Assembly: GCF_002019705.1 (NCBI RefSeq)
Contig: NZ_KV917377.1
Coordinates: 3,222,565-3,286,564 of the forward strand
From: Shouchella patagoniensis
GTDB taxonomy: Bacteria; Bacillota; Bacilli; Bacillales; Bacillaceae_D
Direction: 5' to 3'
Length of the DNA stretch: 64,000 bases
Below the pieces are notes generated by a model, which did not search any database, was not told where the DNA came from, and was given only the letters and a program-made list of their open reading frames with translations. The translations under genes were made by a program, and so were the position numbers. Of the stretch, positions 1 to 12,990 are shown one piece after another; position 1 is the stretch's first letter; each line of letters opens with the position of its first letter.

Positions 1-1
1 A

Positions 2-538
2 CTTGGTTCAGCAGTTGCTCTTGAAGAAGTGAATCGTGCTTTGTTAACGGAAGCTAGTTTAAACAAAGATCATTCCTTGTTTTCGTCCAAAACGAGCGTA
101 TCTGCTGGGCAGGAACAAGTCGCAGCTCGCATTATTGTTATGGGGAACTCAACAGAATCCGTTAGCGATTTGAAGATAGGTGCAGGTGTAATGGCGGATG
201 CTCTCGATTTGATTGGTCTCCAAGGCGCATTTAATGATATTGGGATACAGGTAGATGGGTTTTTGACGCCAAACCAGAAGGAACAAATTGTACAAGTTTT
301 TGTTAATGCAGGAGCAGATGCATTGCCTGATGTGCGCGGAAAGCGCCATACAATGCATACTGATGCATTGAGCATGCATGCGGGGATTTTGGCAAAGGCT
401 GTTGCAAATGCGGTTGTTGGAAGCTATGTCGGCGAAACGAGGATTTTATGTTCTGCTGGTTCGGAGCACCAGGGACCTCAAGGTGCAAATCTCGTTGCGC
501 CGATTTTACGTGTGGAAGGAAGGGTGCTTAATGATTAA
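2..538 (+). CDS. Ring-opening amidohydrolase (cyanuric acid amidohydrolase/barbiturase family), C-terminal part
   Basis: The gene enters the window already open; the frame beginning at base 2 has no start consistent with a full protein, so the N-terminal domain lies outside. The visible 178 codons fit the last two of the three repeated domains of this family, which opens cyanuric acid or barbiturate rings using Lys-Ser pairs. Two Ser-containing motifs are visible, SAGQE early and SAGSEHQGPQGAN near the end, plus a Lys-bearing RGKRHTMHTD segment. The stop overlaps the start of the next gene by 8 bases, so translation is probably coupled. Family membership is well supported by the C-terminal SEHQGP motif; which ring is the substrate cannot be told from sequence, and the neighbours fit either a triazine or an oxidised pyrimidine. 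Confidence 0.82.
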   Translation, partial: LGSAVALEEVNRALLTEASLNKDHSLFSSKTSVSAGQEQVAARIIVMGNSTESVSDLKIGAGVMADALDLIGLQGAFNDIGIQVDGFLTPNQKEQIVQVFVNAGADALPDVRGKRHTMHTDALSMHAGILAKAVANAVVGSYVGETRILCSAGSEHQGPQGANLVAPILRVEGRVLND

Positions 539-1523
539 AAATGGTTGGAAAAATTACCACGCCCATATTGACAAAGGCTTCCTAATCCCACCATATAGCT
601 ACAAAGACGCTCCAGCACCCAAGCGGGCTGAGTGGACAAGGGAAGCAAAAGTGGTAATGTCCAAAAATGAAATTAAGCTTGCCGCAAACCTGGCTCTTGA
701 AAAAATGGTTGGTTACGGAACGACTTATGTCCGAACCCACGTTGACGTTGATCCCCTATTTGAATTACGAGCAGTTGAAGCACTGCTTGAGGTGCAAGAA
801 GAGTGGTCCGGACGGTTGGTGCTTGATCTCATCGTCTTTAACCAGGAAGGCTTTGACCGATTCCCGGAAACAGAAGTTCTGCTAGCAGAGGCGCTGAGTA
901 TGGGAGTGAACGGAATCGGCGGCCATACGAGTATGGATCAAAGCGGTCAAGCACATATCGATAAAATCTTTGCCCTTGCTGAGAAAGCAGATGTTGATTG
1001 GATTGAGTTTCATACCGATGAAACCGGGCGAACTGATGATTTTCATTTGCCGTATTTGGCTAAGGTGGCGATAGAAAAAGGCTGGAAGCAAAAAGTAACC
1101 GCGATTCATTGCTGTTCACTTGCAACGGTGGATGACGACGTAGCAAAGAAAACAATTGAAGCTGTCGTAGAATCGGGAATGACGGTAACGGCTTGCCCAA
1201 CGGCGATCGCAACACGCTCGTTAACGCGGGTGAAAGAACTAGCCAAGGCAGGGGTGCCGTTGCAAGTAGGATCAGACAATATGCGTGATTATTTTAATCC
1301 TCTCGGAAGTGGAAATATGCTCCAATATGGCCAGCTGCTTGCGTATGTACAACGGTTCTATGAACGTCCAGAAATGGAACAAGTGCTTTCTTGGCTTGCA
1401 GCAGAGCCGCCAAATAAGCGAGTGCAAGCCGCAATTGAAAACCTAGAAGTGGAGCTGTCTTATCAAGTAGAATCAGCGATCGAATTGCTTGCGGAAACCC
1501 CAACTATAAACAAACGGCAATGA
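531..1523 (+). CDS. Cytosine deaminase-like metal-dependent amidohydrolase
   Basis: This 330-residue amidohydrolase-superfamily protein carries the metal and catalytic set of cytosine deaminases: HAH at residues 10-12, HTDE with H161 and E164, H193 in AIHCC, and D249 in GSDN followed by a typical DYFNPLG stretch. Family members remove an amino group from cytosine, isoguanine, creatinine or triazines. The reading frame is open further upstream, but ATG at 531 has a good GGAAGG site and fits the family start. Here it may deaminate an amino-substituted ring before the upstream ring-opening enzyme acts; that role is inferred from context. It could equally hydrolyse a linear ureide. Confidence 0.82.
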   Translation: MIKNGWKNYHAHIDKGFLIPPYSYKDAPAPKRAEWTREAKVVMSKNEIKLAANLALEKMVGYGTTYVRTHVDVDPLFELRAVEALLEVQEEWSGRLVLDLIVFNQEGFDRFPETEVLLAEALSMGVNGIGGHTSMDQSGQAHIDKIFALAEKADVDWIEFHTDETGRTDDFHLPYLAKVAIEKGWKQKVTAIHCCSLATVDDDVAKKTIEAVVESGMTVTACPTAIATRSLTRVKELAKAGVPLQVGSDNMRDYFNPLGSGNMLQYGQLLAYVQRFYERPEMEQVLSWLAAEPPNKRVQAAIENLEVELSYQVESAIELLAETPTINKRQ

Positions 1524-1551
1524 ACCTATTTTCATGAGAGGCGGGATCAAG

Positions 1552-2379
1552 ATGCAATCAAAGAGCGAGACGACCACGCTTAATCAAACAGGCCAAAAAC
1601 CAATGAAAAAAAAGCACCTTCCCCAGTCATTATGGGCTGTCCTAACATTGATCAGCTTTTTCCTTCTCTGGCATGCGGCGACTGTTTTGTTTGGGATACC
1701 ACGGTATCTGTTGCCATCTCCAGCGGAAATCTTTTTAAGGATGGTGACAGACTTCAATGTTCTCCTGTCTCATTCCCTGACAACCATCACAGAAGTGGCA
1801 CTTGGATTTGCCCTTAGCTTGTTTATTGGCATTCCTCTTGCAATATCGATTATCTATTCAAGGTACTTAGCAAATTCACTTTATCCAATCCTTATTGGTA
1901 TCCAATGCATTCCGATGGTATCGATTGCACCAATTCTAGTCATCTGGTTTGGATATGGATTAACCACAAAAGTGTTGCTTGCTTGTCTTATTTCGTTTTT
2001 TCCAATTGTCATCAATGCGGTTGTCGGTTTTCGTTCATTGGATAAGGATATGCATGACCTCGGTCGTTCGATCGGGATTTCTGAATGGAAGAACTTCTTC
2101 TATTTGCGCTTACCCCATGCGCTCCCACATTTGTTTGGTGGGGTAAAAGTAGGTGTGACACTTGCTGTCGTTGGGGCGATTGTTGGCGAATTTGTTGCTT
2201 CCGAACAAGGGCTAGGTTATTTGCAGCTTACGGCAAATGCCCGTCTTGATACACCGCTCGTTTTTGCGACATTGTTTACGCTTGCGATTATTGGTATGTT
2301 GCTGTTTGCAACCGTCCATTTGACTGAGAAACTTGTAATGCCTTGGTATAACGCAAATAAAGCGCAAGGAGGTAAGTGA
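1552..2379 (+). CDS. ABC transporter permease, NitT/TauT (SsuC-like) type
   Basis: A 275-residue inner-membrane protein with about six hydrophobic segments and the binding-protein-dependent permease signature near DLGRSIGISEWKNFF, followed by a Pro-containing cytoplasmic loop that docks on the ATPase. In-frame ATG codons exist at 1534 and 1552; the AGGCGGG site at about 1538-1544 selects 1552. It lies between the deaminase-like gene and the ATPase gene with almost no spacing. The NitT/TauT group imports nitrate, taurine, sulfonates, thiamine precursors and pyrimidine-like compounds. In this operon the cargo is probably the ring compound that the neighbouring hydrolases degrade (inference). 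Confidence 0.9.
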   Translation: MQSKSETTTLNQTGQKPMKKKHLPQSLWAVLTLISFFLLWHAATVLFGIPRYLLPSPAEIFLRMVTDFNVLLSHSLTTITEVALGFALSLFIGIPLAISIIYSRYLANSLYPILIGIQCIPMVSIAPILVIWFGYGLTTKVLLACLISFFPIVINAVVGFRSLDKDMHDLGRSIGISEWKNFFYLRLPHALPHLFGGVKVGVTLAVVGAIVGEFVASEQGLGYLQLTANARLDTPLVFATLFTLAIIGMLLFATVHLTEKLVMPWYNANKAQGGK

Positions 2380-2380
2380 G

Positions 2381-3163
2381 ATGTCAACTAAATTAGAACT
2401 TAATAACATAGGAAAAATCTTCACAACAAAAACAGGGGATGTCCAAGCGTTAAAAAATATCTATATGTCAATTGAGGCTGGCGAATTTATCTCGATTGTA
2501 GGACCAAGTGGATGTGGGAAAAGTACGATTATGCGCATCATTGCTGGCCTTGACCAACCTTCAAGCGGCGAAATTAAGCAGAATGAAGAGTCTTTATCAG
2601 CGATTACAAATGGGTTGGCGGTTGTCTTTCAAAAAGATGTGCTGCTTGCATGGCGTTCCGTACTAGAAAATGTTTTATTTCCCCTTGAGGTGAAATTTGG
2701 ACGAAAGCACAAGCAAAAAAATAGGGTGAAAGCAATAGAGCTCTTAGAATCAGTTGGGTTGGAAGGGTTCTCTGATAAATATCCGCATGAGTTATCTGGC
2801 GGGATGAAGCAGCGTGTTTCCATTTGTCGGGCATTAATTCAAGATCCAAAATTATTATTAATGGATGAACCTTTTGGAGCCCTTGATGCCTTAACGAGGG
2901 AACAGATGATGTATGATTTGTTGAAGCTATCGGACAAGTTTGGTTTTACAACAGTGTTTATTACACACAGCATTGAAGAGGCTGTTTTTTTATCGGATAA
3001 AGTAGTAGTCATGTCGGGGCGCCCTGGGACAATCTTACGAGACATTTCCATGAAGCTAGTTCGACCGCGTACAAGCGAAACACGTTCAGAACTGGCGTTT
3101 CATAAACATGTAAAGGAAATACGAGCCATTTTTAAATCCCAAGGGATCTTAGCTGAAGCGTAA
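2381..3163 (+). CDS. ABC transporter ATP-binding protein, SsuB/TauB type
   Basis: A 260-residue ATPase with all expected motifs: Walker A GPSGCGKST at residues 41-49, Q-loop in VVFQKDVLLAW near 83, signature LSGGMKQR at 138-145, Walker B LLLMDEP at 158-164 and the H-loop in ITHSIEEAV. The Q-loop followed by LLAW is typical of the NitT/TauT ATPases. It starts one base after the permease stop, so the two are surely co-translated, and is followed by the binding lipoprotein. It powers import of the operon's substrate. Confidence 0.93.
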   Translation: MSTKLELNNIGKIFTTKTGDVQALKNIYMSIEAGEFISIVGPSGCGKSTIMRIIAGLDQPSSGEIKQNEESLSAITNGLAVVFQKDVLLAWRSVLENVLFPLEVKFGRKHKQKNRVKAIELLESVGLEGFSDKYPHELSGGMKQRVSICRALIQDPKLLLMDEPFGALDALTREQMMYDLLKLSDKFGFTTVFITHSIEEAVFLSDKVVVMSGRPGTILRDISMKLVRPRTSETRSELAFHKHVKEIRAIFKSQGILAEA

Positions 3164-3186
3164 CTTAATACAAAGGAGCTTAATTA

Positions 3187-4239
3187 ATGTTAATGAGACA
3201 TTTTAGATCATTTTACGTTGCTTTCTTTTCGCTCATAGCTTTGGCTGCGTGTAACACTGACTCAGGCGGAGATGACAATGCCCCTACTGTTGATGGAGCA
3301 ACGGGCGAGATTGGTGAACCAGAAGTGGAAGATGTGACACTCCGGCTCAATTGGCGGTTTAAAGGTGAATTTGTCCCTTTTTTCATTGCGCAAGAAAAAG
3401 GATTTTTTGCCGATTATGGACTTAATGTCGAGGTACTTGAAGGGAATGGTTCAACAAACACGATGCAAACGGTCGCCCAAGGGCAAGATGATTTTGGGAT
3501 CACATCAACCGTCGAACCAACTCAAGGCGTTGGAGAAGGAATGCCCATCACAATGGTTGCTTCTTATATGAACCGCTCGCCGATTATGATTGCGTCCCAC
3601 TCAGATACTCCAGTCGAAGAGCCAAAGGATTTAGAAGGAAAATCGATTGCTATGGCGATTGCTTCTACATTTACAAATGTGTTTCCTCATTTTTTAGAGA
3701 CAAATGGGGTGGATGGTTCTTTCGTTGAATCAGTCCAGGTTGAAGCATCGGCTCGGAATGGCTTGTTTTTAAATGAAGAAGTGGATGCGGTAGCGATTTT
3801 TTCTACAAATGAATACCCCATTTTTGAGAAGGAATTAGGGGTGGAATTGACTCCCCTTTACTTAGCAGATTATGGGTTTGATTTGGCTGGATTAACTGTA
3901 ATAGGAAATGACCGCTTTTTAAACGAGAACCCAAACACAACTGCCCGTTTTCTTGCCGCTATTGATGAAGCGTTTGAATACACACTTGCAAACAAAGAAG
4001 AAGCCGTGGAGCTTTCCGCGAAATTATTTCCGGATGCGGTTGATAAAGAAGTAACGCTTATGCAGCTAGGGCTGCTTGAAGAGATCACATTGTTTGATGG
4101 TGTTCCTTATGGGTGGATGACGGAGGAAAACATTGAAGACACACTCGATATTCTAGAAGTTAGTGATTTAATCGGGGAACAGCATGAACTGGATACCTAT
4201 TTCACGAATGCATTTTTAGAGGGGGCTGCTCATGAGTGA
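3187..4239 (+). CDS. ABC transporter substrate-binding lipoprotein, NMT1/THI5-like
   Basis: A 350-residue secreted binding protein. The N-terminus is a lipoprotein signal ending LIALAAC with Cys22, followed by an acidic linker. The mature part begins with VTLRLNWRFKGEFVPFFIAQEKGFF, given here only as its family hallmark LNW and the FxxAQxKGFF pattern, seen in pyrimidine-, hydroxymethylpyrimidine- and riboflavin-binding proteins of the NMT1/THI5 group. That group often binds pyrimidine-like heterocycles, which agrees with the ring-opening and deaminase-like enzymes in the operon. Start at 3187 follows an AAAGGAGC site 8 bases upstream; ATG at 3193 is possible. The stop overlaps the next gene by 8 bases. 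Confidence 0.88.
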   Translation: MLMRHFRSFYVAFFSLIALAACNTDSGGDDNAPTVDGATGEIGEPEVEDVTLRLNWRFKGEFVPFFIAQEKGFFADYGLNVEVLEGNGSTNTMQTVAQGQDDFGITSTVEPTQGVGEGMPITMVASYMNRSPIMIASHSDTPVEEPKDLEGKSIAMAIASTFTNVFPHFLETNGVDGSFVESVQVEASARNGLFLNEEVDAVAIFSTNEYPIFEKELGVELTPLYLADYGFDLAGLTVIGNDRFLNENPNTTARFLAAIDEAFEYTLANKEEAVELSAKLFPDAVDKEVTLMQLGLLEEITLFDGVPYGWMTEENIEDTLDILEVSDLIGEQHELDTYFTNAFLEGAAHE

Positions 4240-4873
4240 GTCTTATAAAGTGCATTCCCTTGTTACAGAGAAAAAGTCAGCCTTGCTTGTCGTTGATATG
4301 CAAAATGATTTCGTTCATGGAGACGGTATGTTTGCCCATGATGGCTACGATGTTTCGAATTACCAACGGTTAGAGCCAACAATTTACGGCATGATTGAAA
4401 CGGCAAGGGAGCACGGCATACCGGTTGTGTTTGTATCAATGGCCCATAACGAAAGCAATGATGGAAGCGGAGCATGGCGCAAACGGCGACTAGCGAAGGG
4501 CCACCCCAATAGTTGCCGAGAAGGTACTTGGGGAGCACAGCAGTATGGACGCTTGAGCCCTCTCTCTCATGAAGCGCTCATAAAAAAACATCGCTACAGT
4601 GGTTTTATTGGCACCGATTTGGATGGGAGGTTAAAGCAATTGCAAATCGAAACCTTGGTCCTAGTTGGAATCAACACAAACACGTGTATAGAATCAACAG
4701 CGCGGGATGCGCACCAGCTTGATTATCACGTTGTGCTTGTCAATGAAGCAACAACGGCTGCATATGAAGATGCAATTACGCCTTCGCTTACCAATATAGA
4801 GCGCCATTTTGGTATCGTTGTTGAGCATAATGAATGGCAAGCCGCGATCACAGGACAAACACAAGTCAGTTAA
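4232..4873 (+). CDS. Isochorismatase-fold cysteine amidohydrolase (RutB/biuret hydrolase-like)
   Basis: A 213-residue cysteine hydrolase with the catalytic triad of the family: D22 in VVDMQNDF, K119 before RYSGF, and C152 in INTNTCIESTARDA. The KxRYSGF and TNxCxESTxRD patterns are close to RutB (peroxyureidoacrylate amidohydrolase) and N-carbamoyl-amino-acid amidases. Relatives also include biuret hydrolase. In an operon with a cyanurate/barbiturate-type ring opener, a ureide such as biuret or ureidomalonate is a reasonable substrate, but sequence alone does not decide. The start overlaps the lipoprotein gene stop. Confidence 0.85.
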   Translation: MSESYKVHSLVTEKKSALLVVDMQNDFVHGDGMFAHDGYDVSNYQRLEPTIYGMIETAREHGIPVVFVSMAHNESNDGSGAWRKRRLAKGHPNSCREGTWGAQQYGRLSPLSHEALIKKHRYSGFIGTDLDGRLKQLQIETLVLVGINTNTCIESTARDAHQLDYHVVLVNEATTAAYEDAITPSLTNIERHFGIVVEHNEWQAAITGQTQVS

Positions 4874-4888
4874 AGGGGAGGGGGTGCC

Positions 4889-6502
4889 ATGGATCATTTT
4901 AATAAACGCGGACTTACCGTTAAACGATTGCTCGAACTCGACCCGTTAACCGGCGCCGTCTTAGTAGCTGGTGAGTCGCGGAAGGAAAATGTTGTTTCCC
5001 GAGTCAATATTATGGGTTCTCCGGAGATCGTCAATTTTGTCAGACCACAAGAGTTCATTATGACAACAGGATATCTGTTTCAAGACCGGAAAGAGCAGTT
5101 TGGCGAACTGATTGAGGCGCTTGATAGGCGAGGCGTCTCTGGGATTGGTATTAAAGTCCAACGCTTTATTGAATCGATTCCGGATAGCTTGCTTGAAAAA
5201 GCGAGAGAACTCCATTTCCCCGTCGTAGAGATTCGTCCTCACACCATTTTTTCTGATGTGATCAGGGTGGCAATGGAAGAAGTGTTTTATCAGGAATCCG
5301 AACATTTAATTACACTTTATAATCGGGTCCAGCAGTTTATGAATGTGCTCGGAAAAGGAAAACCGCTTCAAGATGTGGTCTATCAACTCGAACAGATTAT
5401 TGGCAATCCAATTTTGCTGCAAGATTTGGAGGGGACAGTAACAGCACCTTTGCTCGAGGATGTGCTTGAAGCGGGGGAATTGTTTGAAGCGAAAAATGGA
5501 TTAGAATCAAAAGCGGGTACCGGCGTCAGTATGATTGCAATGCGGTCTGAACAATTTCGCTGTTACTCGATTCCACTCGCAGTAGAAGGGTTCGTTGATT
5601 ATGTGCCTTTTATTGCGTGTGTCGAGACGAATTATGAGCTAACAGAAGTGGACTGTTTGACCCTCGATAAAATGAGCGCCATGCTCGGAATTGAGCTGAC
5701 AAACGACCTTGCTCGAAAAAAGATTGAGAAGAAATATTTAAACCAGTTTGTAAAGGACTTACTCATTGGCGACATTGTATCAAAAAGCGACATCAATATT
5801 CGAGCAAGTTCTTTCGATTTGGATTTTGAACAGAAATGGTTCCGTGTCGTCCTCCTCGATGTGGATTCAGATGTGTTTTTTAATCATACGGAGTTCTCGT
5901 ACTTATTAAAGTCGATTGAAAGGGCGACAAAAGGCCAGTTGCTTGGGACGAGCCTTGATGAATCTCTTGCTTTTTTGATCGTTGAAGATTCAAAAGAACG
6001 GGCGGAGCAAGCGGCGCAAACAATAAAAAAAGAAGTCGCTCGCCAAGTGAAGCGATTTGGTTTGGAAATCGATTTTATGCTTTATGCAGGTCAAGCTGTT
6101 CAGGCTATTAGTGATATATCAAAAAGCTATCAAAAATCGCGTCAAGTGAAACAGATTTCAAGTCGTTTCAGGATAGACAACCATATGCTCTCGTTCGAAA
6201 ACCTCCATTTATACCGATTGCTCTATTTTTTGCCACAACATAGCGGGGTAGACGACTACGTCCAAGACGTGCTCGGATCACTAGAAGCAGACGGAAAAAA
6301 AGGGGCAGTCTATATCGAAACGCTGGAAACGTATTTCCAAGCCAATAAAAACATACGTGCCACAGCAGAGCAGCTTTATACCCATTACAATACGATTGTG
6401 TATCGACTAGACAAGATCGCATCCTTGTTGAAGATCGACTTGGATCATCCAGACAGTAGTCTTGAATTGCAAGTTGCACTAAAACTAAGGCATATTCGAT
6501 GA
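4889..6502 (+). CDS. PucR family transcriptional regulator
   Basis: A 537-residue regulator with an N-terminal PucR-like sensor region (about residues 8-125, containing the FVRPQEFIMTTGY stretch), a middle region, and a C-terminal PucR-type helix-turn-helix around residues 470-530 in which ETYFQANKNIRATAEQLYTH-type sequence and the NTIVYRL recognition segment are visible. PucR proteins switch on purine or ureide catabolism genes when nitrogen compounds are present. It has a very strong GGGGAGGGGG site and sits inside the operon, between the cysteine hydrolase and the amidase, so it probably controls its own operon. Confidence 0.9.
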   Translation: MDHFNKRGLTVKRLLELDPLTGAVLVAGESRKENVVSRVNIMGSPEIVNFVRPQEFIMTTGYLFQDRKEQFGELIEALDRRGVSGIGIKVQRFIESIPDSLLEKARELHFPVVEIRPHTIFSDVIRVAMEEVFYQESEHLITLYNRVQQFMNVLGKGKPLQDVVYQLEQIIGNPILLQDLEGTVTAPLLEDVLEAGELFEAKNGLESKAGTGVSMIAMRSEQFRCYSIPLAVEGFVDYVPFIACVETNYELTEVDCLTLDKMSAMLGIELTNDLARKKIEKKYLNQFVKDLLIGDIVSKSDINIRASSFDLDFEQKWFRVVLLDVDSDVFFNHTEFSYLLKSIERATKGQLLGTSLDESLAFLIVEDSKERAEQAAQTIKKEVARQVKRFGLEIDFMLYAGQAVQAISDISKSYQKSRQVKQISSRFRIDNHMLSFENLHLYRLLYFLPQHSGVDDYVQDVLGSLEADGKKGAVYIETLETYFQANKNIRATAEQLYTHYNTIVYRLDKIASLLKIDLDHPDSSLELQVALKLRHIR

Positions 6503-6517
6503 ATAAGGAGGCAGACT

Positions 6518-7693
6518 ATGAGCCAGTCACGTGCGTTTATAACCGAAGGATGGAAGGTTCAAGAAACGAATGAAGGTTGCTTAAATGAGCTTTCGTTTGC
6601 GGTGAAAGATGTGTTTGCCATAAAAGGACATACGGCAAGTGCAGGGAATCCAGATTGGCTAGCGACTCACGATCCAGCTACAAACTATGCCACGGCGATC
6701 AAACGATTGTTAAAGAGGGGCGCTACACTTGTTGGAACGACGGTGACTGATGAACTCATGTTTAGTTTAAACGGAGAAAATGTGCACTATGGAACACCGG
6801 AAAACCCAAATGCGGTCGGAAGGATCCCAGGTGGTTCATCAAGTGGCTCCGCTGCCGCAGTTGCCGCGGGTGTTGTTGATTTCGCCATTGGCACGGATAC
6901 AGCAGGATCGATCCGCATCCCGGCCAGTTACTGCGGTGTGTATGGATTCCGTCCAACTCATGGTGCTGTATCAACAGAAGGGGTTATTCCTCTTGCTGCT
7001 CGTTTTGATACAGTCGGCTGGATGGCGCGGTCGGCCTCTGTTCTCAAAAAAGTGGGTGAAGCGTTATTTGAAAAAGACCAAACACAGGCTAGGTTTAAGA
7101 CGATCTATGTGCCAGAAGATGCTCTTGCCCTCGTATCAGAAGAGGTAGCAGCTAGGTTTGAGCGTGAACTTCAAGCGGTCTCAGGAAGTTTGAACATTGA
7201 ATACATGAAGCTAAGTGAGGATGGCCTTGCAACATTTATGAACACGTTTCGTGGTTTGCAAGGTTATCAAATTTGGCAAACTCATAAAGACTGGATCATA
7301 GACGTGCAGCCAACCTTTGCACCTGATATTGCCGCGCGCTTTAATTGGACGAGTACCATTCCGGCAGAAGGGCAGGAAAAAGCGGTACGTCAAAAAAAAG
7401 TGCTAAGAAAGCAAGTTGAAATGCTCCTTGGCAAGCACGGGCTACTCGCATTCCCCACATCGCCGAATGTTGCGCCACTTCTTAACACGGGTCCAGAGAA
7501 ATTAGAAAACCATCGCACAAACACATTTAAACTGACGGCGATAAGCGGGTTGTCGGAAATGCCGCAAGCAACAATGCCCCTGTTAGAAGTTGAAGGGTTA
7601 CCGGTTGGGTTCTCTCTCTTGGCCGGCAGAAACATGGATGCTCAGCTTTTGTCATACATCAATGAATTAGAGACAGCGGGGGTAGCTAAATGA
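6518..7693 (+). CDS. Amidase signature family hydrolase
   Basis: A 391-residue amidase with the Ser-cisSer-Lys triad: K30 in AVKDVF, S107 in GGSSSGS and nucleophile S131 in GTDTAGSIR. It is shorter than the roughly 450-600 residues of AtzE- and AtzF-type enzymes and lacks the second domain of allophanate hydrolase, so it is not an ordinary AtzF. It likely cuts a C-N bond in a linear intermediate released by the ring-opening step, such as a carboxybiuret- or ureido-acid-like compound (inference). It has an AAGGAGG site and its stop overlaps the next start (ATGA). Confidence 0.85.
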   Translation: MSQSRAFITEGWKVQETNEGCLNELSFAVKDVFAIKGHTASAGNPDWLATHDPATNYATAIKRLLKRGATLVGTTVTDELMFSLNGENVHYGTPENPNAVGRIPGGSSSGSAAAVAAGVVDFAIGTDTAGSIRIPASYCGVYGFRPTHGAVSTEGVIPLAARFDTVGWMARSASVLKKVGEALFEKDQTQARFKTIYVPEDALALVSEEVAARFERELQAVSGSLNIEYMKLSEDGLATFMNTFRGLQGYQIWQTHKDWIIDVQPTFAPDIAARFNWTSTIPAEGQEKAVRQKKVLRKQVEMLLGKHGLLAFPTSPNVAPLLNTGPEKLENHRTNTFKLTAISGLSEMPQATMPLLEVEGLPVGFSLLAGRNMDAQLLSYINELETAGVAK

Positions 7694-8580
7694 AACTCGG
7701 AACAGTAAAACAAAACAACGAGGAAATTGCTGCGATCTTAGCAGGGAACAAGCTAATCCCATTAAGAGAATTCAATGAACAGTTTGACTACAAATGGGAA
7801 GAGACGGTTTTTGACTTACTTCAAAGCGGAAAATTTGAACAACTAAAGACCTGGTATGATGACGAAGGGAAAGAGTTATTAGTAAAAGAGGCAGGTGTGG
7901 CAGGAGAAGCTGAGCTCGCACCGCTTTACCGCAACCCAAGGAAAATCTGGGGAATCGGTCTTAACTATACGAATAGCAAAGAGGAGAAAGCGGAGGCACC
8001 ATACACTGATCCGGTAAGCTTTATGAAGCCAGACACGAGTTTAATCGGAGAAGGGGATCAGATCAACATTCCACAAGGTTCAACTCAAACTACGGCAGAA
8101 GCAGAGCTGGCCATTATTATTGGCAAAACATGTGATCATGTGGAAGAATCAGAAGCAATGAATTATGTCGCCGGGTTTACGACTGCTCTTGATATGACTG
8201 AGGCCTCGATTCACGAAGCGAATTTGCGTTATTTAACGCGGGCAAAGAGTTTTAATACATTCTTTAGTTTTGGTTCCTATCTGTTTACGCCTGACGAATT
8301 TACCTCTCTTGAAAAAATAACGGTCTCAACGTACCAAAATGGCAAAATGAAACATACAAACTGCATTGAAAATATGCGTTACTCTTTGCCTTACATCGTC
8401 TCCTTCCACTCAAAGGTCATGACACTTTTGCCTGGTGACGTTCTTTTAACAGGTACGCCGGGAGCGGTCGTTATTCACAAAGGTGACAAGGTGGAATGTA
8501 TGATTAGCGGAATGCCTAGGCTTGCGAACGAAGTAGCGGATGTGGTTTCACGATGTGACACACCTAGTTCATCTCGTTAG
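7690..8580 (+). CDS. Fumarylacetoacetate hydrolase (FAH) fold protein
   Basis: A 296-residue protein with an N-terminal cap and a C-terminal FAH domain from about residue 90. The metal site is visible as the Glu pair in TTAEAELAIIIG and the following LDMTEAS, and the fold's late GDVLLTGTPG motif is present. FAH-fold enzymes cut or decarboxylate 1,3-dicarbonyl or 2-keto acids. The helix that usually reads NDxSARD is LDMTEASIHE here, an unusual variant. Start ATG overlaps the amidase stop, so it belongs to the same operon; its place in a ureide pathway is unexplained and may deal with the carbon skeleton left after amide hydrolysis. No clear terminator follows directly. Confidence 0.82.
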   Translation: MKLGTVKQNNEEIAAILAGNKLIPLREFNEQFDYKWEETVFDLLQSGKFEQLKTWYDDEGKELLVKEAGVAGEAELAPLYRNPRKIWGIGLNYTNSKEEKAEAPYTDPVSFMKPDTSLIGEGDQINIPQGSTQTTAEAELAIIIGKTCDHVEESEAMNYVAGFTTALDMTEASIHEANLRYLTRAKSFNTFFSFGSYLFTPDEFTSLEKITVSTYQNGKMKHTNCIENMRYSLPYIVSFHSKVMTLLPGDVLLTGTPGAVVIHKGDKVECMISGMPRLANEVADVVSRCDTPSSSR

Positions 8581-9196: not shown

Positions 9197-10084
9197 TTAT
9201 TCTTTTACAAATCGATTCGTCAAGGTCCCTAATTTTTCGATGCTAACGGAAACGGTATCACCTGGTTTTAAATAGATACGCTCTTGTTCTGGCAAACCCA
9301 TTACGACGCCTTCTGGTGTTCCAGTAAGGATAATGTCCCCTGGTTTTAACGTAAAGTGTTTAGAAATGTAGCTAATGATTTCTTTGCAGTTAAAGATCAT
9401 ATCGGATGTATTTGAGTGCTGTCTAGTTTCGTTGTTAACCGTTGTTTGAAGTGACAGTTTCTGAGGATCCCCAACTTCATCTGCTGTGACAAGGTATGGA
9501 CCGATAGGACTGAAATCATCACATGTTTTGCCAAGCAACCATTGAGGCGTCCGCATTTGCAAGTCTCGGGCAGAAAGGTCATTCGCAATCGTATAGCCGA
9601 GGACGTATTCGAGCGCTTTTTCCTCAGATACATTTTTGGCTGTTTTTCCAATGACAATCGCTAGCTCGACTTCATAATCAAGTTCATTTGTCACACTAGG
9701 TACAGCAATGTCATGATCGTGGCCAGTTAGCGTATTGTTGAACTTATTAAACAGAATCGGGACTTCTGGATACGGTGAGTTGGTTTCATCCGCGTGTTTC
9801 CGGTAATTGAGGCCAACACAGATGATCTTTTCTGGATTTGTCACAGCGGGTCCAAATTGACAGTCTAATTCATTTCGGATATAGAGACCGTTTGTTTCGA
9901 GAGTTTGGACATATGCTCCTAGCTGGTTGGCGGCTTGTTCACCGCCAGCGATCAACTCAGTGATCGTTGTCGGGATGTTCGCAGCAGGCCGTACTGTTAA
10001 GGCATGATTGATATCAATGACTTGGCCATTTTGTTTAACACCAAGCGTTTCGTTCCCTTGATTGAGTAGCGTACATAGTTTCAT
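9197..10084 (-). CDS. FAH family hydrolase, probable 2,4-diketo-3-deoxy sugar-acid hydrolase
   Basis: A 295-residue FAH-fold protein with the canonical metal motif: ELDYEVELAIVIGK, then ANDLSARDLQ, and the late GDIILTGTPEGV motif. The QWLLGKTCDDFSPIGP segment is typical of the group containing L-2,4-diketo-3-deoxyfuconate or -rhamnonate hydrolase, which splits a diketo sugar acid into pyruvate and a hydroxy acid. Such genes sit beside an SDR that makes the diketo acid, exactly as here. Substrate chain length (five or six carbons) cannot be read from sequence. Confidence 0.83.
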   Translation of the reverse strand: MKLCTLLNQGNETLGVKQNGQVIDINHALTVRPAANIPTTITELIAGGEQAANQLGAYVQTLETNGLYIRNELDCQFGPAVTNPEKIICVGLNYRKHADETNSPYPEVPILFNKFNNTLTGHDHDIAVPSVTNELDYEVELAIVIGKTAKNVSEEKALEYVLGYTIANDLSARDLQMRTPQWLLGKTCDDFSPIGPYLVTADEVGDPQKLSLQTTVNNETRQHSNTSDMIFNCKEIISYISKHFTLKPGDIILTGTPEGVVMGLPEQERIYLKPGDTVSVSIEKLGTLTNRFVKE

Positions 10085-10098
10085 TGTTTTTTCTCTCC

Positions 10099-10857
10099 TT
10101 ATGCATTTTTTCCAAAGACAACGCCGCCGTCGATGTAAAGTGGGGAACCCATCATAAACCGTGACTCTTCTGAGGCAAGAAAAAGGGCTGCATTTGCAAC
10201 GTCTTCAGCTGTTCCTAACTCACCAGATAACTGGCGGTTTTTAATTTTTGCAATTGCCTCGTGTGGATTTGGTGATTTTGATAAGTAATCTTCAACAAAA
10301 GGCGTCATAATGGTGCCAGGAAGGAGGGCATTTACACGAATGTTATCGCTGGCATAATCCACTTGCATCGACTTTGTTAAAGCTAATACAGCCCCTTTAG
10401 TTGTGGCATAAGACGCCCGGTCAGCAAGACCGATCTCTGCGATGCAAGACGACATATTAATAATGGTACCTGATTTTGCCTTAATCATATAAGGCAATAC
10501 AGCTTTGCTAGATAGAAAAACGCCTTTAATGTTCACTGCAATAACCCGATCCCAGTCTTGCTCGTTTAGTTCATGCAAGCGACCAACACCGCTCACTCCG
10601 GCATTATTAAACAAAATGTCAACTCGACCGAATTGTTCGATTACTTGAGAGGCCATTGCCTGAACGGAAGTTTCTTTTGTTGTATCAACTTGGATGAATG
10701 TAGCGTTAGCAATTTCACTTGCGGCTTCTTTACCCTTTTCTGCATCAATGTCAGCAATAATAACGGCTGCTCCTTCCGTAGAAAAACGAGCAGCTGTTGC
10801 TTTACCGATGCCTGATCCAGCGCCGGTAATAATCGCTGTTTTGTGTAACAAACGCAT
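10099..10857 (-). CDS. SDR family dehydrogenase, probable 2-keto-3-deoxy sugar-acid 4-dehydrogenase
   Basis: A 252-residue classical short-chain dehydrogenase: cofactor motif TGAGSGIG at residues 11-18, NNAG near 84-87, catalytic S137, Y150 and K154 (YATTK). The Asp-containing ADID segment at the end of beta-2 suggests NAD rather than NADP. The frame opens at TTG 10863, but ATG at 10857 sits 9 bases from an AAAGGAG site and is the better start. The pairing with a 2,4-diketo-acid-type FAH hydrolase suggests oxidation at C4 of a 2-keto-3-deoxy sugar acid (inference from context). Confidence 0.85.
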   Translation of the reverse strand: MRLLHKTAIITGAGSGIGKATAARFSTEGAAVIIADIDAEKGKEAASEIANATFIQVDTTKETSVQAMASQVIEQFGRVDILFNNAGVSGVGRLHELNEQDWDRVIAVNIKGVFLSSKAVLPYMIKAKSGTIINMSSCIAEIGLADRASYATTKGAVLALTKSMQVDYASDNIRVNALLPGTIMTPFVEDYLSKSPNPHEAIAKIKNRQLSGELGTAEDVANAALFLASEESRFMMGSPLYIDGGVVFGKNA

Positions 10858-10957
10858 AAACAAGGACTCCTTTCCTTTTTGTTGATATGTCGTATTGTTC
10901 CAAAGTGTAGCACAGCAGGTTTGTATTGATAATTGCTAGATTTAGCGAAAAGGTAGC

Positions 10958-11821
10958 TTATTTTAAGGTGCGTTTCCGATAGCTGGAAGGAGTCATGCCT
11001 GTGATTGAACGAAAAGTTCGGAAAAAATGAGGCATACTGCTGTAACCACACTCTTCGGCAATGGTTTGGATGCTTTCATCTGTACTAATTAGCCATTCTT
11101 TTGCTCGCACCATACGTTTGGATTTAACAAACTCACTGTAAGTTAAGCCGACGGCGGTTTTAAATGTTTTGCTGAAATAAGAAGGATGAACCGATGATCT
11201 TCTCGCTAACATTGTTAAATCTAAGTCCTCTTTTAAATGGGTATCAATATAAGACAAGCTGTCTTTAATCCAAGCGGGAATATGTGGCGTCGATATTGTT
11301 AGGTCGTTTGGCGTCATGCAACTACGATTCATTAAAATGATGATGGTACGAATAATCAAAGCCGTCATCTCAGTTGAATAATGATCTGTTTGCATTGTTT
11401 CTCGCTTAAGTTGTTCAAATAGCGAGCAGACCTCTTGTTGTTTATCGGGAGCCATATGGTAACGGTACTGCTTGTTTTGCTTCGAAGCAAAGAATAAGGA
11501 GGAAAGTAGCTCCTGGTCTGAACTGAGCGTTGATGATAAGAGGGACGGGCAGAAAAACAACGCTGTTGTCGTTAACGTATCTCCTTTCTTCAAGATCGAA
11601 CAATGGATAACATTACCAGGAATAATGACTGTATCTCCTTCTTTGACATCATAAAACATGTCATCGATAAAAAAAGTACAACTGCCTTGGTGAATAATAA
11701 AGAGTTCATGCCAATCATGTACATGATGAGGAAGTTCTTCGACGCTCGTTTTGGTTGTGTGCGGAACAAGGTGGAATGGGATCGTATGCGATTGATCCAT
11801 CGGTTTTCGTATCGGGTCCAT
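10958..11821 (-). CDS. AraC family transcriptional regulator
   Basis: A 287-residue regulator with an N-terminal cupin-like sensing domain (HVHDWHELFIIHQGS near residues 33-47) and a C-terminal pair of helix-turn-helix motifs (about 185-285), including HPSYFSKTFK and the final GYSSMPHFFRTFR segment. It heads the minus-strand SDR/FAH operon (94-base gap) and is divergent from the TRAP operon, so it probably senses the sugar acid and controls both sides. ATG at 11821 follows an AAGGGAGC site. Confidence 0.92.
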   Translation of the reverse strand: MDPIRKPMDQSHTIPFHLVPHTTKTSVEELPHHVHDWHELFIIHQGSCTFFIDDMFYDVKEGDTVIIPGNVIHCSILKKGDTLTTTALFFCPSLLSSTLSSDQELLSSLFFASKQNKQYRYHMAPDKQQEVCSLFEQLKRETMQTDHYSTEMTALIIRTIIILMNRSCMTPNDLTISTPHIPAWIKDSLSYIDTHLKEDLDLTMLARRSSVHPSYFSKTFKTAVGLTYSEFVKSKRMVRAKEWLISTDESIQTIAEECGYSSMPHFFRTFRSITGMTPSSYRKRTLK

Positions 11822-11924
11822 ACTGCTTGCTCCCTTCTGTTAAGATCAAAAAAAGCAACTTTTACGCCAGAATTCGTTATTTATTGCTTTTCTATTTTCA
11901 TGGTAGCATACAGATAAACATTTT

Positions 11925-11938
11925 TGAAAGCGCTTTCT
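11925..11938 (+). promoter_or_regulatory. cre box (CcpA site) upstream of the TRAP operon
   Basis: TGAAAGCGCTTTCT matches the Gram-positive cre consensus TGWAARCGYTWNCW at every position and is centred on a 12-bp perfect palindrome. It lies in the 158-base gap between the divergent AraC gene and the TRAP genes, 42 bases before the dctP start. This predicts repression by glucose through CcpA. Confidence 0.75.
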
Positions 11939-11979
11939 ATATTGGTGATAGACAAAAACGAAGGGAGGTTGACACAGGA

Positions 11980-12990
11980 ATGAAACGAAGCTTTCTGATG
12001 TTAGTTGTATGTATATGCCTTTCTGGTTGTACACAAACAACTTCAGCCGTTATCGAAGAAGAGGTGCATACGGTCAATGTGGCATACGGTAACCAACCAG
12101 GTGAACCACTTGATCAACAGGCTAGAATGTGGCAGGAACTAGCTGGTGAAAGAAGTGATGGGCGTCTTCAATTAAATGTGTATCCGAGTTCCCAGCTTGG
12201 CGGGGAAAGCGACATGATTGAACTGGCGATGCGAGGCAACAATGTCATTGTGTTTACGGCTTACGACTTTCTGATGGATTACGTACCTGATTTTGGCATC
12301 TTAGCGGCACCTTATTTAGCAGATGATTTTGAGGATCTGCTTTATTTGCCAACAACCGATTGGTACAAAGGGCTTGAAGGTGAAATGAACGAGATGGGGC
12401 TAGCGCTTCTTGGCAAAAAAACGATTTATGGCGAACGACATCTTATGACGAAAGAAGAGGTACAGACACCTGATGACCTCCGCGGTATGAAAATCCGAGT
12501 ACCAAATAACAACTTATATATTCGTGCATTTCAAGCTTTAGGAGCCTCACCGACGCCACTGCCGCTTGGTGACCTTTATGCTTCTTTGCAGCAAGGTGTC
12601 ATCGACGGGGCGGAAAACCCGCTCCCCGTTTTACAAGGAACAAAAACAAATGAAGTGACCAACTATTTGACGCTCACAGGACATATGAAGGTGATGAGTG
12701 TGTGGATAACAGGAACTGGGATGATGGAGTCTTTACCAGATGATCTACAACAGATTCTCATTGAAACGAGCGAGGAAGCGGCTGAATATGCTCATCCCAT
12801 TACAGAAAAAGAGTCAGAGGAGGCGCTAGAGGCGTTTGAAAAACAAGGGATGATTATTAATGAAATCGACCAAGAGTTATTCCGTGAAAAAGCGGCACCG
12901 TTTTTTGATTCGATGCCTACTTGGTCGCCAGGTTTATATGAAATGGTAGTAGACCTTATTGAAGAACGTCCGAAGGAGATAGGATCATGA
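11980..12990 (+). CDS. TRAP transporter substrate-binding lipoprotein (DctP family)
   Basis: A 336-residue binding protein of the DctP family. The N-terminus is a lipoprotein signal ending CLSGC. The family's dicarboxylate/sugar-acid ligand region is visible, with the Arg in the MKIRVPNN segment that usually salt-bridges the substrate carboxylate. The frame is open upstream to 11755, but an AAGGGAGGT site at 11961-11969 points to ATG 11980. Together with the next two genes it forms a TRAP importer, here most likely for a sugar acid used by the downstream enzymes. Confidence 0.92.
   Translation: MKRSFLMLVVCICLSGCTQTTSAVIEEEVHTVNVAYGNQPGEPLDQQARMWQELAGERSDGRLQLNVYPSSQLGGESDMIELAMRGNNVIVFTAYDFLMDYVPDFGILAAPYLADDFEDLLYLPTTDWYKGLEGEMNEMGLALLGKKTIYGERHLMTKEEVQTPDDLRGMKIRVPNNNLYIRAFQALGASPTPLPLGDLYASLQQGVIDGAENPLPVLQGTKTNEVTNYLTLTGHMKVMSVWITGTGMMESLPDDLQQILIETSEEAAEYAHPITEKESEEALEAFEKQGMIINEIDQELFREKAAPFFDSMPTWSPGLYEMVVDLIEERPKEIGS

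What the first reader, a model, noticed from the sequence alone, without database searches (positions are those of the whole stretch)
2..8580. Compact import-and-hydrolysis operon for a cyclic ureide or triazine
The sequence shows, in one tightly packed operon, a cyanurate/barbiturate-type ring opener, a cytosine-deaminase-like amidohydrolase, an NMT1-type importer, a RutB-like cysteine hydrolase, a PucR regulator, an amidase and an FAH enzyme. Known cyanurate routes use AtzD, then AtzE or biuret hydrolase, then AtzF; the oxidative uracil route uses barbiturase and ureidomalonase. This set matches neither exactly: the amidase is too short for AtzF and has no second domain, and an FAH enzyme is added. 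It may be a distinct route for a modified pyrimidine or triazine used as nitrogen source.
Basis: partly seen in the sequence, partly recalled or inferred. Interest (0 to 1): 0.68.

Follow-up and report, generated by a model that had tools for sequence, protein, structure and literature searches.

The report
Cyclic-ureide import and ring-opening operon
An alkaline-loving bacterium carries a nine-gene kit that imports a small nitrogen-rich ring compound, opens the ring with an orphan relative of cyanuric acid hydrolase, and probably strips its nitrogen through oxalurate, a known intermediate of uric acid breakdown; the exact starting compound is still unproven.

Summary
The operon is real: nine packed genes, the first starting 512 bases before the window. 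It is not a known cyanurate or barbiturate route. The ring opener belongs to a clade of AtzD/barbiturase-family (Toblerone-fold) enzymes in Bacillota, Cyanobacteria and Pseudomonadota; all 34 members analysed share one altered active site: two of three Ser-Lys dyads are broken (K42>Q, S85>I, K296>N), the dyad thought catalytic is kept. The CodA-like amidohydrolase occurs in exactly the same 9 of 41 family genomes. In three distant Bacillota genomes the same pair sits with AllF/AllG/AllH, the oxalurate-cleaving transcarbamylase; here a RutB-like hydrolase, an amidase and an FAH protein stand instead. Homologues of that amidase, mostly with the FAH, also follow pucF-pucG in uric acid clusters of related genomes, and PucG makes oxalurate (recalled). 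Two independent contexts thus point to oxalurate, or a close acyl-urea, as ring-opening product, and so to a parabanic-acid-type ring. That substrate is inferred, not shown; the FAH step is unexplained.

The parts
1..538 (+). C-terminal 178 codons of the ring opener (Toblerone-fold cyclic amide hydrolase, PF09663); the complete gene (349 aa) starts 512 bases before the window (L002:9489-10538)
   Evidence: clade and active-site signature; model of the 78% identical L022 orthologue: pLDDT 88.6, pTM 0.90, Toblerone fold by Foldseek
531..1523 (+). amidohydrolase of the cytosine deaminase/AtzC kind (330 aa from ATG 531), lacking the N-terminal part present in relatives, with CodA-like HxDE and FxQEG motifs (roles recalled)
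   Evidence: both motifs in 19 of 19 Bacillota orthologues aligned; same 9 of 41 genomes as the ring opener
1534..2379 (+). ABC transporter permease
2381..3163 (+). ABC transporter ATP-binding protein
3187..4239 (+). NMT1/THI5-type solute-binding lipoprotein; weak similarity to the formylaminopyrimidine-binding protein 3ix1 (53 bits)
4232..4873 (+). isochorismatase-fold cysteine hydrolase, RutB best among NCBIfam models but far under its cut-off; proposed acyl-urea hydrolase; no orthologue in three congeneric genomes
4889..6502 (+). PucR-type transcriptional regulator
6518..7693 (+). single-domain amidase (PRK08310); homologues 47-52% identical follow pucF-pucG in uric acid clusters
7690..8580 (+). 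FAH-superfamily protein; ExE, Asp and Lys conserved in 18 of 18 orthologues, lid His absent from 17 of 18 and from 5 of 5 uric-acid-cluster homologues (43-52% identical)

Best explanation
The operon imports an amino- or imino-substituted cyclic ureide and strips its nitrogen. Proposed order: (1) the NMT1 ABC system imports the ring; (2) the CodA-like amidohydrolase replaces an amino/imino group by oxygen; (3) the ring opener hydrolyses the resulting cyclic diacyl-urea at one C-N bond with its remaining Ser205-Lys156(-Glu209) site, giving an acyl-urea, most likely oxalurate, so the ring is of the parabanic acid (imidazolidine-2,4,5-trione) type; (4) the RutB-like hydrolase and/or the amidase remove carbamate and ammonia from the acyl-urea and its amide; (5) the FAH protein acts on the alpha-oxo/oxalyl product in a step not yet known; PucR switches the operon. 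Shown here: gene content, conservation, co-occurrence, active-site changes, and different tail modules around the same core pair in different lineages. Inferred: every reaction, the order, oxalurate as node, and the substrate.
For: Clade of 34 with 100/100 support on a branch of 1.65, one identical 12-residue signature Q R I K K S E N K S A G against K R S K R S E K R S G G in 16 of the 18 others; the kept dyad is reported as the only one absolutely conserved and its serine the best candidate nucleophile in cyanuric acid hydrolase (PMC4051656, passages). Amidohydrolase orthologues (69-72%) in exactly the 9 genomes with the ring opener; the other 32 have nothing above 38%. In three distant Bacillota genomes the ring opener and an amidohydrolase with the same motifs lie with FdrA(AllF) and two AllG genes on one strand, with AllH in line in two and divergent in the third; Pseudomonadota loci have AllG in 4 of 4 and FdrA in 3 of 4. 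AllFGH converts oxalurate to oxamate and carbamoyl phosphate (PMC11326118, abstract). In 7 of 12 further loci fetched the amidase directly follows pucF- and pucG-like genes, with FAH next in 5 of the 7; PucG confirmed in one (3isl, 624 bits); OHCU decarboxylase, HIU hydrolase and allantoate amidohydrolase by NCBIfam in sampled loci. The five uric-acid-cluster FAHs lack the lid His as 17 of 18 operon ones do. Independently, ammonia-oxidising archaea were reported with biuH next to an FAH gene in several, an amidase-like gene, and often allFGHK (PMC12625717, passages).
Against: No substrate was tested. Parabanic acid hydrolyses by itself to oxalurate at neutral and alkaline pH, slowly at neutral (PMC5703782, passages), so an alkaliphile may hardly need an enzyme for it. 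Ring openers with the classical cyanurate-type active site also occur beside FdrA-DUF1116-DUF2877-carbamate kinase, so the transcarbamylase context is not specific to oxalurate. FAH-type enzymes act on C-C bonds or tautomers (recalled) and no step is obvious for oxalurate or oxamate. Amidase and isochorismatase look partly redundant; three congeneric genomes lack an isochorismatase orthologue. A close FAH homologue also occurs without PucG beside an AllD/sulfolactate-type dehydrogenase (L094, L095), the pair with a TRAP transporter (L089), and amidase homologues alone (L098, L099); L096 and L097 have pucG and amidase but no FAH seen. The trees are unrooted and do not show that uric-acid-cluster and operon enzymes are intermixed. 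The Pseudomonadota amidohydrolases lack the HxDE motif. HbpS-like and phosphoribosyltransferase-like neighbours in other phyla are unexplained.
Confidence: 0.42

Rival explanations
1. A barbiturate-type route: the ring opener acts on a C5- or C6-substituted barbiturate or oxidised pyrimidine (5-methylbarbiturate, dialurate, alloxan); hydrolase and amidase make a substituted malonate or mesoxalate, and FAH decarboxylates or tautomerises it.
For: Lys at the R325 position is shared with a barbiturase relative (Nonomuraea; 577 bits to barbiturase 5hwe); barbiturase gives 3-oxo-3-ureidopropionate, an acyl-urea (PMC3758960); it would give the amidase a malonamate and the FAH a sensible oxo-acid; the amidase aligns over residues 6-381 with malonamidase E2.
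Against: The barbiturase relative keeps all three Ser-Lys dyads; amidase and FAH homologues sit in uric acid clusters where no malonyl compound is expected.
Confidence: 0.2
2. A pyrimidine-carboxylate route: the ring opener acts on orotate or dihydroorotate, giving ureidofumarate or carbamoylaspartate, then via the RutB-like hydrolase oxaloacetate, on which FAH acts as tautomerase.
For: A Toblerone enzyme was deposited as 'orotic acid hydrolase' (5hy0); a PyrE-like gene lies near the ring opener in 6 of 9 cyanobacterial loci (only sub-threshold Pfam support); FAHD proteins are oxaloacetate tautomerases (PMC10825186, passages); RutB acts on ureidoacrylate (recalled).
Against: 5hy0 is the weakest of the 7 solved relatives of this clade (267 against 440 bits) and keeps Lys at the K296 position; hydrolysis of aromatic orotate is unfavourable (chemical reasoning); it leaves the amidase without a role and does not explain AllFGH.
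Confidence: 0.12
3. It is an ordinary cyanurate or barbiturate route with a diverged ring opener.
For: AtzC-like amidohydrolase (closest solved structure AtzC, 116.8 bits), AtzD-family ring opener, and distant relatives of biuret hydrolase and AtzE are all present.
Against: Loss of K42, S85 and K296; mutating any serine or lysine of these dyads inactivated AtzD or cut the activity of CAH by about 10^4-fold or more (PMC3758960, PMC4051656); NCBIfam cyanuric acid hydrolase model not reached (289 of 360 bits); no AtzF in the operon.
Confidence: 0.1
4. The ring is a cyclic imide or pyridinedione rather than a ureide, and the operon makes amides and oxo-acids from it.
For: FAH and amidase fit 2-oxo-amides; one cyanobacterial locus has genes that look like a nicotinate-type pathway nearby (L040, names by eye).
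Against: AllFGH and RutB-like partners point to a carbamoyl group; the nicotinate-like link is one locus.
Confidence: 0.08

Closest known systems
AtzD/TrzD cyanuric acid hydrolases (PF09663, Toblerone fold)
   Same: Same family and fold (TM 0.89 to 6bum for a 78% identical orthologue); Ser205-Lys156-Glu209 kept
   Different: About 36% identity to AtzD; two of three Ser-Lys dyads broken, two substrate arginines replaced by lysine, below the NCBIfam equivalog cut-off
Barbiturase (Rhodococcus type, 5hwe)
   Same: Same family; its relative shares Lys at the R325 position; ring-opening product is an acyl-urea
   Different: Its relative keeps the three dyads
Group V of the cyclic amide hydrolases (PMC3758960; AZC_3203; Frankia enzyme, probably 5hy0)
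   Same: Group V lists Bacillus alcalophilus and B. cellulosilyticus sequences, probably members of this clade (not checked); AZC_3203 had no cyanurate or barbiturate activity
   Different: 5hy0 (Frankia origin recalled) is the most distant solved relative and keeps Lys at the K296 position; the 2013 paper states these lysines and serines are conserved throughout, which does not hold for the 34 clade members
AllFGH oxalurate transcarbamylase modules
   Same: Neighbours of the same ring opener and amidohydrolase in three distant Bacillota genomes
   Different: Not found in the window operon, where isochorismatase, amidase and FAH stand instead
puc uric acid/allantoin clusters of related Bacillaceae
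   Same: Amidase (47-52%) and FAH (43-52%) homologues, PucR-type regulator, NMT1-type binding protein in most
   Different: No ring opener or CodA-like amidohydrolase seen there; oxalurate would come from PucG (recalled)
AtzC / cytosine deaminase (CodA)
   Same: Amidohydrolase family with CodA-like HxDE and QEG motifs (roles recalled)
   Different: Lacks the N-terminal part; no activity known

Membership tests
Cyanuric acid hydrolase (AtzD/TrzD) | PF09663 over the family cut-off, full length | tested here: met
   319.1 bits, cut-off 25, positions 2-357 of 358
Cyanuric acid hydrolase (AtzD/TrzD) | three Ser-Lys dyads and three arginines around the substrate | tested here: not met
   K42>Q39, S85>I78, K296>N273, R195>K167, R325>K303
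Cyanuric acid hydrolase (AtzD/TrzD) | NCBIfam equivalog NF052395 cut-off 360 bits | tested here: not met
   289.2 bits; a distant Bacillota clade member reaches 359.3
Barbiturase | group VI signature Asn195, His321, Lys325, Val345, Ser/Ala346 (PMC3758960) | tested here: not met
   K, K, A, G at 195, 325, 345, 346; 321 not tabulated
Group V / Bacillus subgroup of the family | Lys at the CAH Arg188 position (Bacillus subgroup, PMC4051656) and conserved Gly346 (Group V, PMC3758960) | tested here: met
   K167 and G324 in the window protein; same in all 34; the papers' own sequences were not compared
Toblerone fold | overall fold of 4bvq/6bum | tested here: met
   AlphaFold model of the L022 orthologue (window protein itself not folded), Foldseek TM 0.89
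AtzF allophanate hydrolase | two-domain protein, NCBIfam TIGR02713 over 511 bits | tested here: not met
   391 aa, 146.4 bits
RutB ureidoacrylate amidohydrolase | TIGR03614 over 377.95 bits | tested here: not met
   110.9 bits; isochorismatase family met
FAH hydrolase/decarboxylase | metal site ExE...D plus Lys | tested here: met
   18 of 18 orthologues
FAH hydrolase/decarboxylase | lid His(xxE) dyad (recalled) | tested here: not met
   His absent from the window protein and from 17 of 18 orthologues; L029 has it
Parabanic acid / oxalurate pathway | catalytic activity on parabanic acid, oxalurate, oxamate | not testable with these tools
   needs enzyme assays
Oxalurate pathway | genomic linkage to oxalurate enzymes | tested here: inconclusive
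   met in other lineages (AllFGH) and for homologues (pucG clusters), not in the window operon itself

The most novel reading that the evidence does not exclude
The 34-member clade is a family of parabanic acid (or methyl/imino-parabanic acid) hydrolases found in three phyla, and the window operon is a scavenging pathway for oxidised purines (or oxidised creatinine): iminoparabanate to parabanate to oxalurate, ended hydrolytically by amidase and FAH in Bacillaceae and Paenibacillaceae and by energy-yielding carbamoyl transfer (AllFGH) in distant Bacillota and Pseudomonadota. It would give a substrate to an orphan branch of the Toblerone-fold enzymes and name the missing oxalurate-cleaving enzymes after PucG in Bacillaceae.
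Probability: 0.3. Interest if true: 0.75.

Novelty: new variant of a known kind. Interest (0 to 1): 0.58.

Why it matters
The AtzD/barbiturase family has a branch with no known substrate (Group V, PMC3758960). This operon and its counterparts give a clade of that kind a tight, testable context: a fixed deaminase-like partner and two alternative tails, both tied to acyl-urea breakdown. It also offers candidates (amidase, FAH) for what follows PucG in uric acid use by some Bacillaceae, and warns that 'cyanuric acid amidohydrolase' labels on such genes are doubtful.

Tried and rejected
Nitrogen-control (TnrA-type) boxes upstream: 7 sites with at most one mismatch in 17 upstream regions (one exact) against 5.4 expected by shuffling; no excess. 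Upstream aldehyde dehydrogenase/dehydrogenase/membrane-protein genes (L002:3257-8625) as part of the pathway: rejected, none is beside the operon in the 8 family loci (one genome has a 28-30% aldehyde dehydrogenase relative about 7 kb away). Allophanate hydrolase for the amidase: rejected. Orotate hydrolysis after the 5hy0 title: kept only as rival. Isochorismatase orthologue elsewhere in the genomes that lack it in the operon: only 32-34% paralogues. Gamma-glutamyltransferase-like genes beside three operon loci (L018, L019, L030) could be oxamate amidohydrolases of the HpxW kind (recalled), but NCBIfam names them gamma-glutamyltransferase and no HpxW test was made. The dihydroorotase and PyrD/PyrK genes near the distant Bacillota loci may be plain pyrimidine synthesis and were not used as evidence. 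I had also called the distant Bacillota genomes anaerobes and the lid His lost in all 18 FAHs; neither was borne out and both are corrected. Peat et al. 2017 (AEM, class V structures) is not held; what I know of it is recalled. Rows dropped: L051 (ring opener split in two frames) and L064 (57-aa fragment) are not in the tree; alignment A2 for the structure used 26 of the 31 loci plus two classical paralogues.


Full report
1. What is there. The window starts inside the first gene of a nine-gene + strand operon. The window lies at G000:C1:3222565-3286564; the upstream stretch gives the whole ring opener, 349 aa, L002:9489-10538, starting 512 bases before window base 1. Pfam and NCBIfam name the rest: amidohydrolase, ABC permease, ABC ATPase, NMT1 binding protein, isochorismatase, PucR, amidase, FAH. 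Neighbouring genes overlap or lie within 23 bases. The amidohydrolase probably starts at 531.

2. Conserved and self-contained. In the bacterial family, 9 of 41 genomes, own included, hold the ring opener. In the 8 others the same genes surround it, except the isochorismatase, missing in 3; outer neighbours differ between genera. One congeneric genome has a contig of exactly the length of the Shouchella oshimensis record and another is within 100 bases of S. miscanthi, so the window is probably Shouchella (inference). A scan of the genome collection gave 31 loci. In the 18 Bacillota loci: amidohydrolase 18 of 18, PucR-type regulator 18 of 18 (in nine Paenibacillaceae loci only 19-25% identical and reversed), all three ABC genes 16 of 18, isochorismatase 14 of 18 (one only 30% identical), amidase 16 of 18, FAH 17 of 18. 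Some misses are due to contig or stretch ends (L027, L032, L038). The three congeneric genomes without the isochorismatase in the operon have only 32-34% paralogues elsewhere. Gene order is shuffled in Paenibacillaceae, so the set, not the order, is kept.

3. The ring opener is not a cyanurate or barbiturate hydrolase by its active site. A tree of 52 family members puts it in a clade of 34 (21 Bacillota, 9 Cyanobacteria, 4 Pseudomonadota; 100/100, branch 1.65). At 12 active-site positions all 34 read Q R I K K S E N K S A G; 16 of the 18 others read K R S K R S E K R S G G, among them AtzD of Pseudomonas ADP; the two exceptions are a Nonomuraea barbiturase relative and one protein with a group-IV-like Thr-Arg. 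So dyads A (K42-S85) and C (K296) are broken and dyad B (K162-S233, plus Glu) is kept. In cyanuric acid hydrolase dyad B is reported as the only one absolutely conserved in the family and its serine the best candidate nucleophile (PMC4051656, passages); the AtzD authors favoured S85 instead (PMC3758960, passages and section 12), which this clade lacks. The 2013 paper's Group V contains two Bacillus sequences and AZC_3203, which had no activity on cyanurate or barbiturate; the 2014 paper mentions a Bacillus subgroup with Lys at Arg188, as here. The clade is thus probably a recognised orphan; in the passages I read its broken dyads were only implied. The enzyme 5hy0, deposited as 'orotic acid hydrolase', is the farthest of the 7 solved relatives and keeps a Lys at K296, so it is not a member. 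A model of the S. miscanthi orthologue (78% identical; pLDDT 88.6, pTM 0.90) has the Toblerone fold.

4. The fixed partner. The amidohydrolase orthologue (69-72%) is in exactly the 9 genomes with the ring opener; of the other 32, 15 have only hits of 38% or less and 17 none. Closest solved structures are AtzC and cytosine deaminases. It keeps a CodA-like H-x-D-E and QEG, in 19 of 19 Bacillota orthologues but not in the two Pseudomonadota homologues aligned (roles recalled), which suggests deamination of a ring carbon next to a carbonyl.

5. Two alternative tails. In three distant Bacillota genomes (families f86 and f105 of the tool's numbering; lifestyle unknown) FdrA, two AllG, the ring opener and the amidohydrolase lie in a row on one strand, with AllH in line in two and divergent (28% identical) in the third, and PucR-type genes nearby (Pfam and NCBIfam names checked on L086 only); the amidohydrolase shares its motifs with the window's. 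Pseudomonadota loci have AllG in 4 of 4, FdrA in 3 of 4 and an HbpS-like gene in 4 of 4; cyanobacterial loci have the HbpS-like gene in 8 of 9, an NMT1 binding protein in 8 of 9 and a phosphoribosyltransferase-like gene in 6 of 9. AllFGH converts oxalurate to oxamate and carbamoyl phosphate (PMC11326118, abstract). In the window's lineage the tail is isochorismatase, amidase and FAH. The same core pair with either tail suggests that both tails act on the same kind of product: an acyl-urea.

6. Amidase and FAH in uric acid clusters. Searching the 41 genomes with amidase and FAH showed close homologues outside the operon. I fetched 12 such places. In 7 (L088, L090-L093, L096, L097) the amidase follows an allantoate-amidohydrolase-like gene and a PucG-like gene, and in 5 of these the FAH comes next (L096 and L097 are near-identical and show no FAH). 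The other five places have the pair with PucR and a TRAP transporter (L089), the FAH without the amidase (L094, L095) or the amidase alone (L098, L099). Sampled neighbours are OHCU decarboxylase fused to HIU hydrolase, HIU hydrolase and allantoate amidohydrolase, and PucG (3isl, 624 bits). PucG makes oxalurate from ureidoglycine and glyoxylate (recalled; the passages seen give only its name and role). In unrooted trees the five uric-acid-cluster FAHs form one clade (100/96) and the seven amidases another (91/87); they are about as close to the operon enzymes as those of different genera are to one another, but intermixing is not shown. The five FAHs lack the lid His, as 17 of 18 operon FAHs do, while the FAHs of L089 and L094 keep it. 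So the same two enzymes may well do the same job, on oxalurate, in both settings. Independently, FAH, an amidase-like gene, biuH and allFGHK were reported near one another in ammonia-oxidising archaea (PMC12625717, passages).

7. Best reading and its limits. Two different contexts, AllFGH and pucG clusters, meet at oxalurate. The cyclic form of oxalurate is parabanic acid, known as the singlet-oxygen product of uric acid (PMC5703782, abstract and passages) and among the nitrogen sources whose use depends on NtrC in a Burkholderia strain (PMC5491218, passages). Against it: parabanic acid opens by itself at neutral to alkaline pH; classical-type ring openers also sit with AllFGH-like genes on Aminobacter and enterobacterial plasmids, so AllFGH-like complexes may take other acyl-ureas; and the FAH step has no assigned chemistry. 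I therefore put 0.42 on the acyl-urea/oxalurate scheme and 0.3 on parabanic acid proper.

8. Literature. None of the titles and abstracts shown describes this operon or a substrate for this clade. Subscription papers are mostly not in the library, among them Peat et al. 2017, so this is not proof of absence.

Noticed in passing
window 9197-12990: A separate set just downstream: a second FAH protein, a short-chain dehydrogenase and an AraC-type regulator on the - strand, and a TRAP-type binding protein on the + strand; looks like sugar-acid use (names by eye).
   Followed up: no
L002:3257-8625 (upstream of the window): A regulator, an aldehyde dehydrogenase, a 3-hydroxyisobutyrate-type dehydrogenase and two membrane proteins with no NCBIfam match lie upstream but not beside the operon in related loci.
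   Followed up: partly
L067:5989-13089; L066:3588-17104: Ring openers with a classical cyanurate-type active site sit with FdrA, DUF1116, DUF2877 and carbamate kinase on enterobacterial and Aminobacter plasmids (132 plasmid records match the ring opener): a possible energy-yielding cyanurate or ureide route.
   Followed up: partly
L040:11237-11653 and 11 other loci: An HbpS/GlcG-like protein (PF03928) follows the clade ring opener in 8 of 9 cyanobacterial and 4 of 4 Pseudomonadota loci; role unknown.
   Followed up: partly
L040, L041, L044: Three cyanobacterial loci carry a classical AtzD-type ring opener near the clade one.
   Followed up: no
L018:17259-18890, L019:17419-18891, L030:8247-9845: Gamma-glutamyltransferase-like genes next to the operon; might be oxamate amidohydrolases of the HpxW kind (recalled).
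   Followed up: partly
L086:9196-10293: A clade member of a distant Bacillota genome scores 359.3 against the 360-bit cut-off of NCBIfam 'cyanuric acid amidohydrolase', so such genes risk being misnamed.
   Followed up: no
L033:6900-7787: Alkalihalobacillus trypoxylicola has a second cytosine-deaminase-like gene inside the operon.
   Followed up: no
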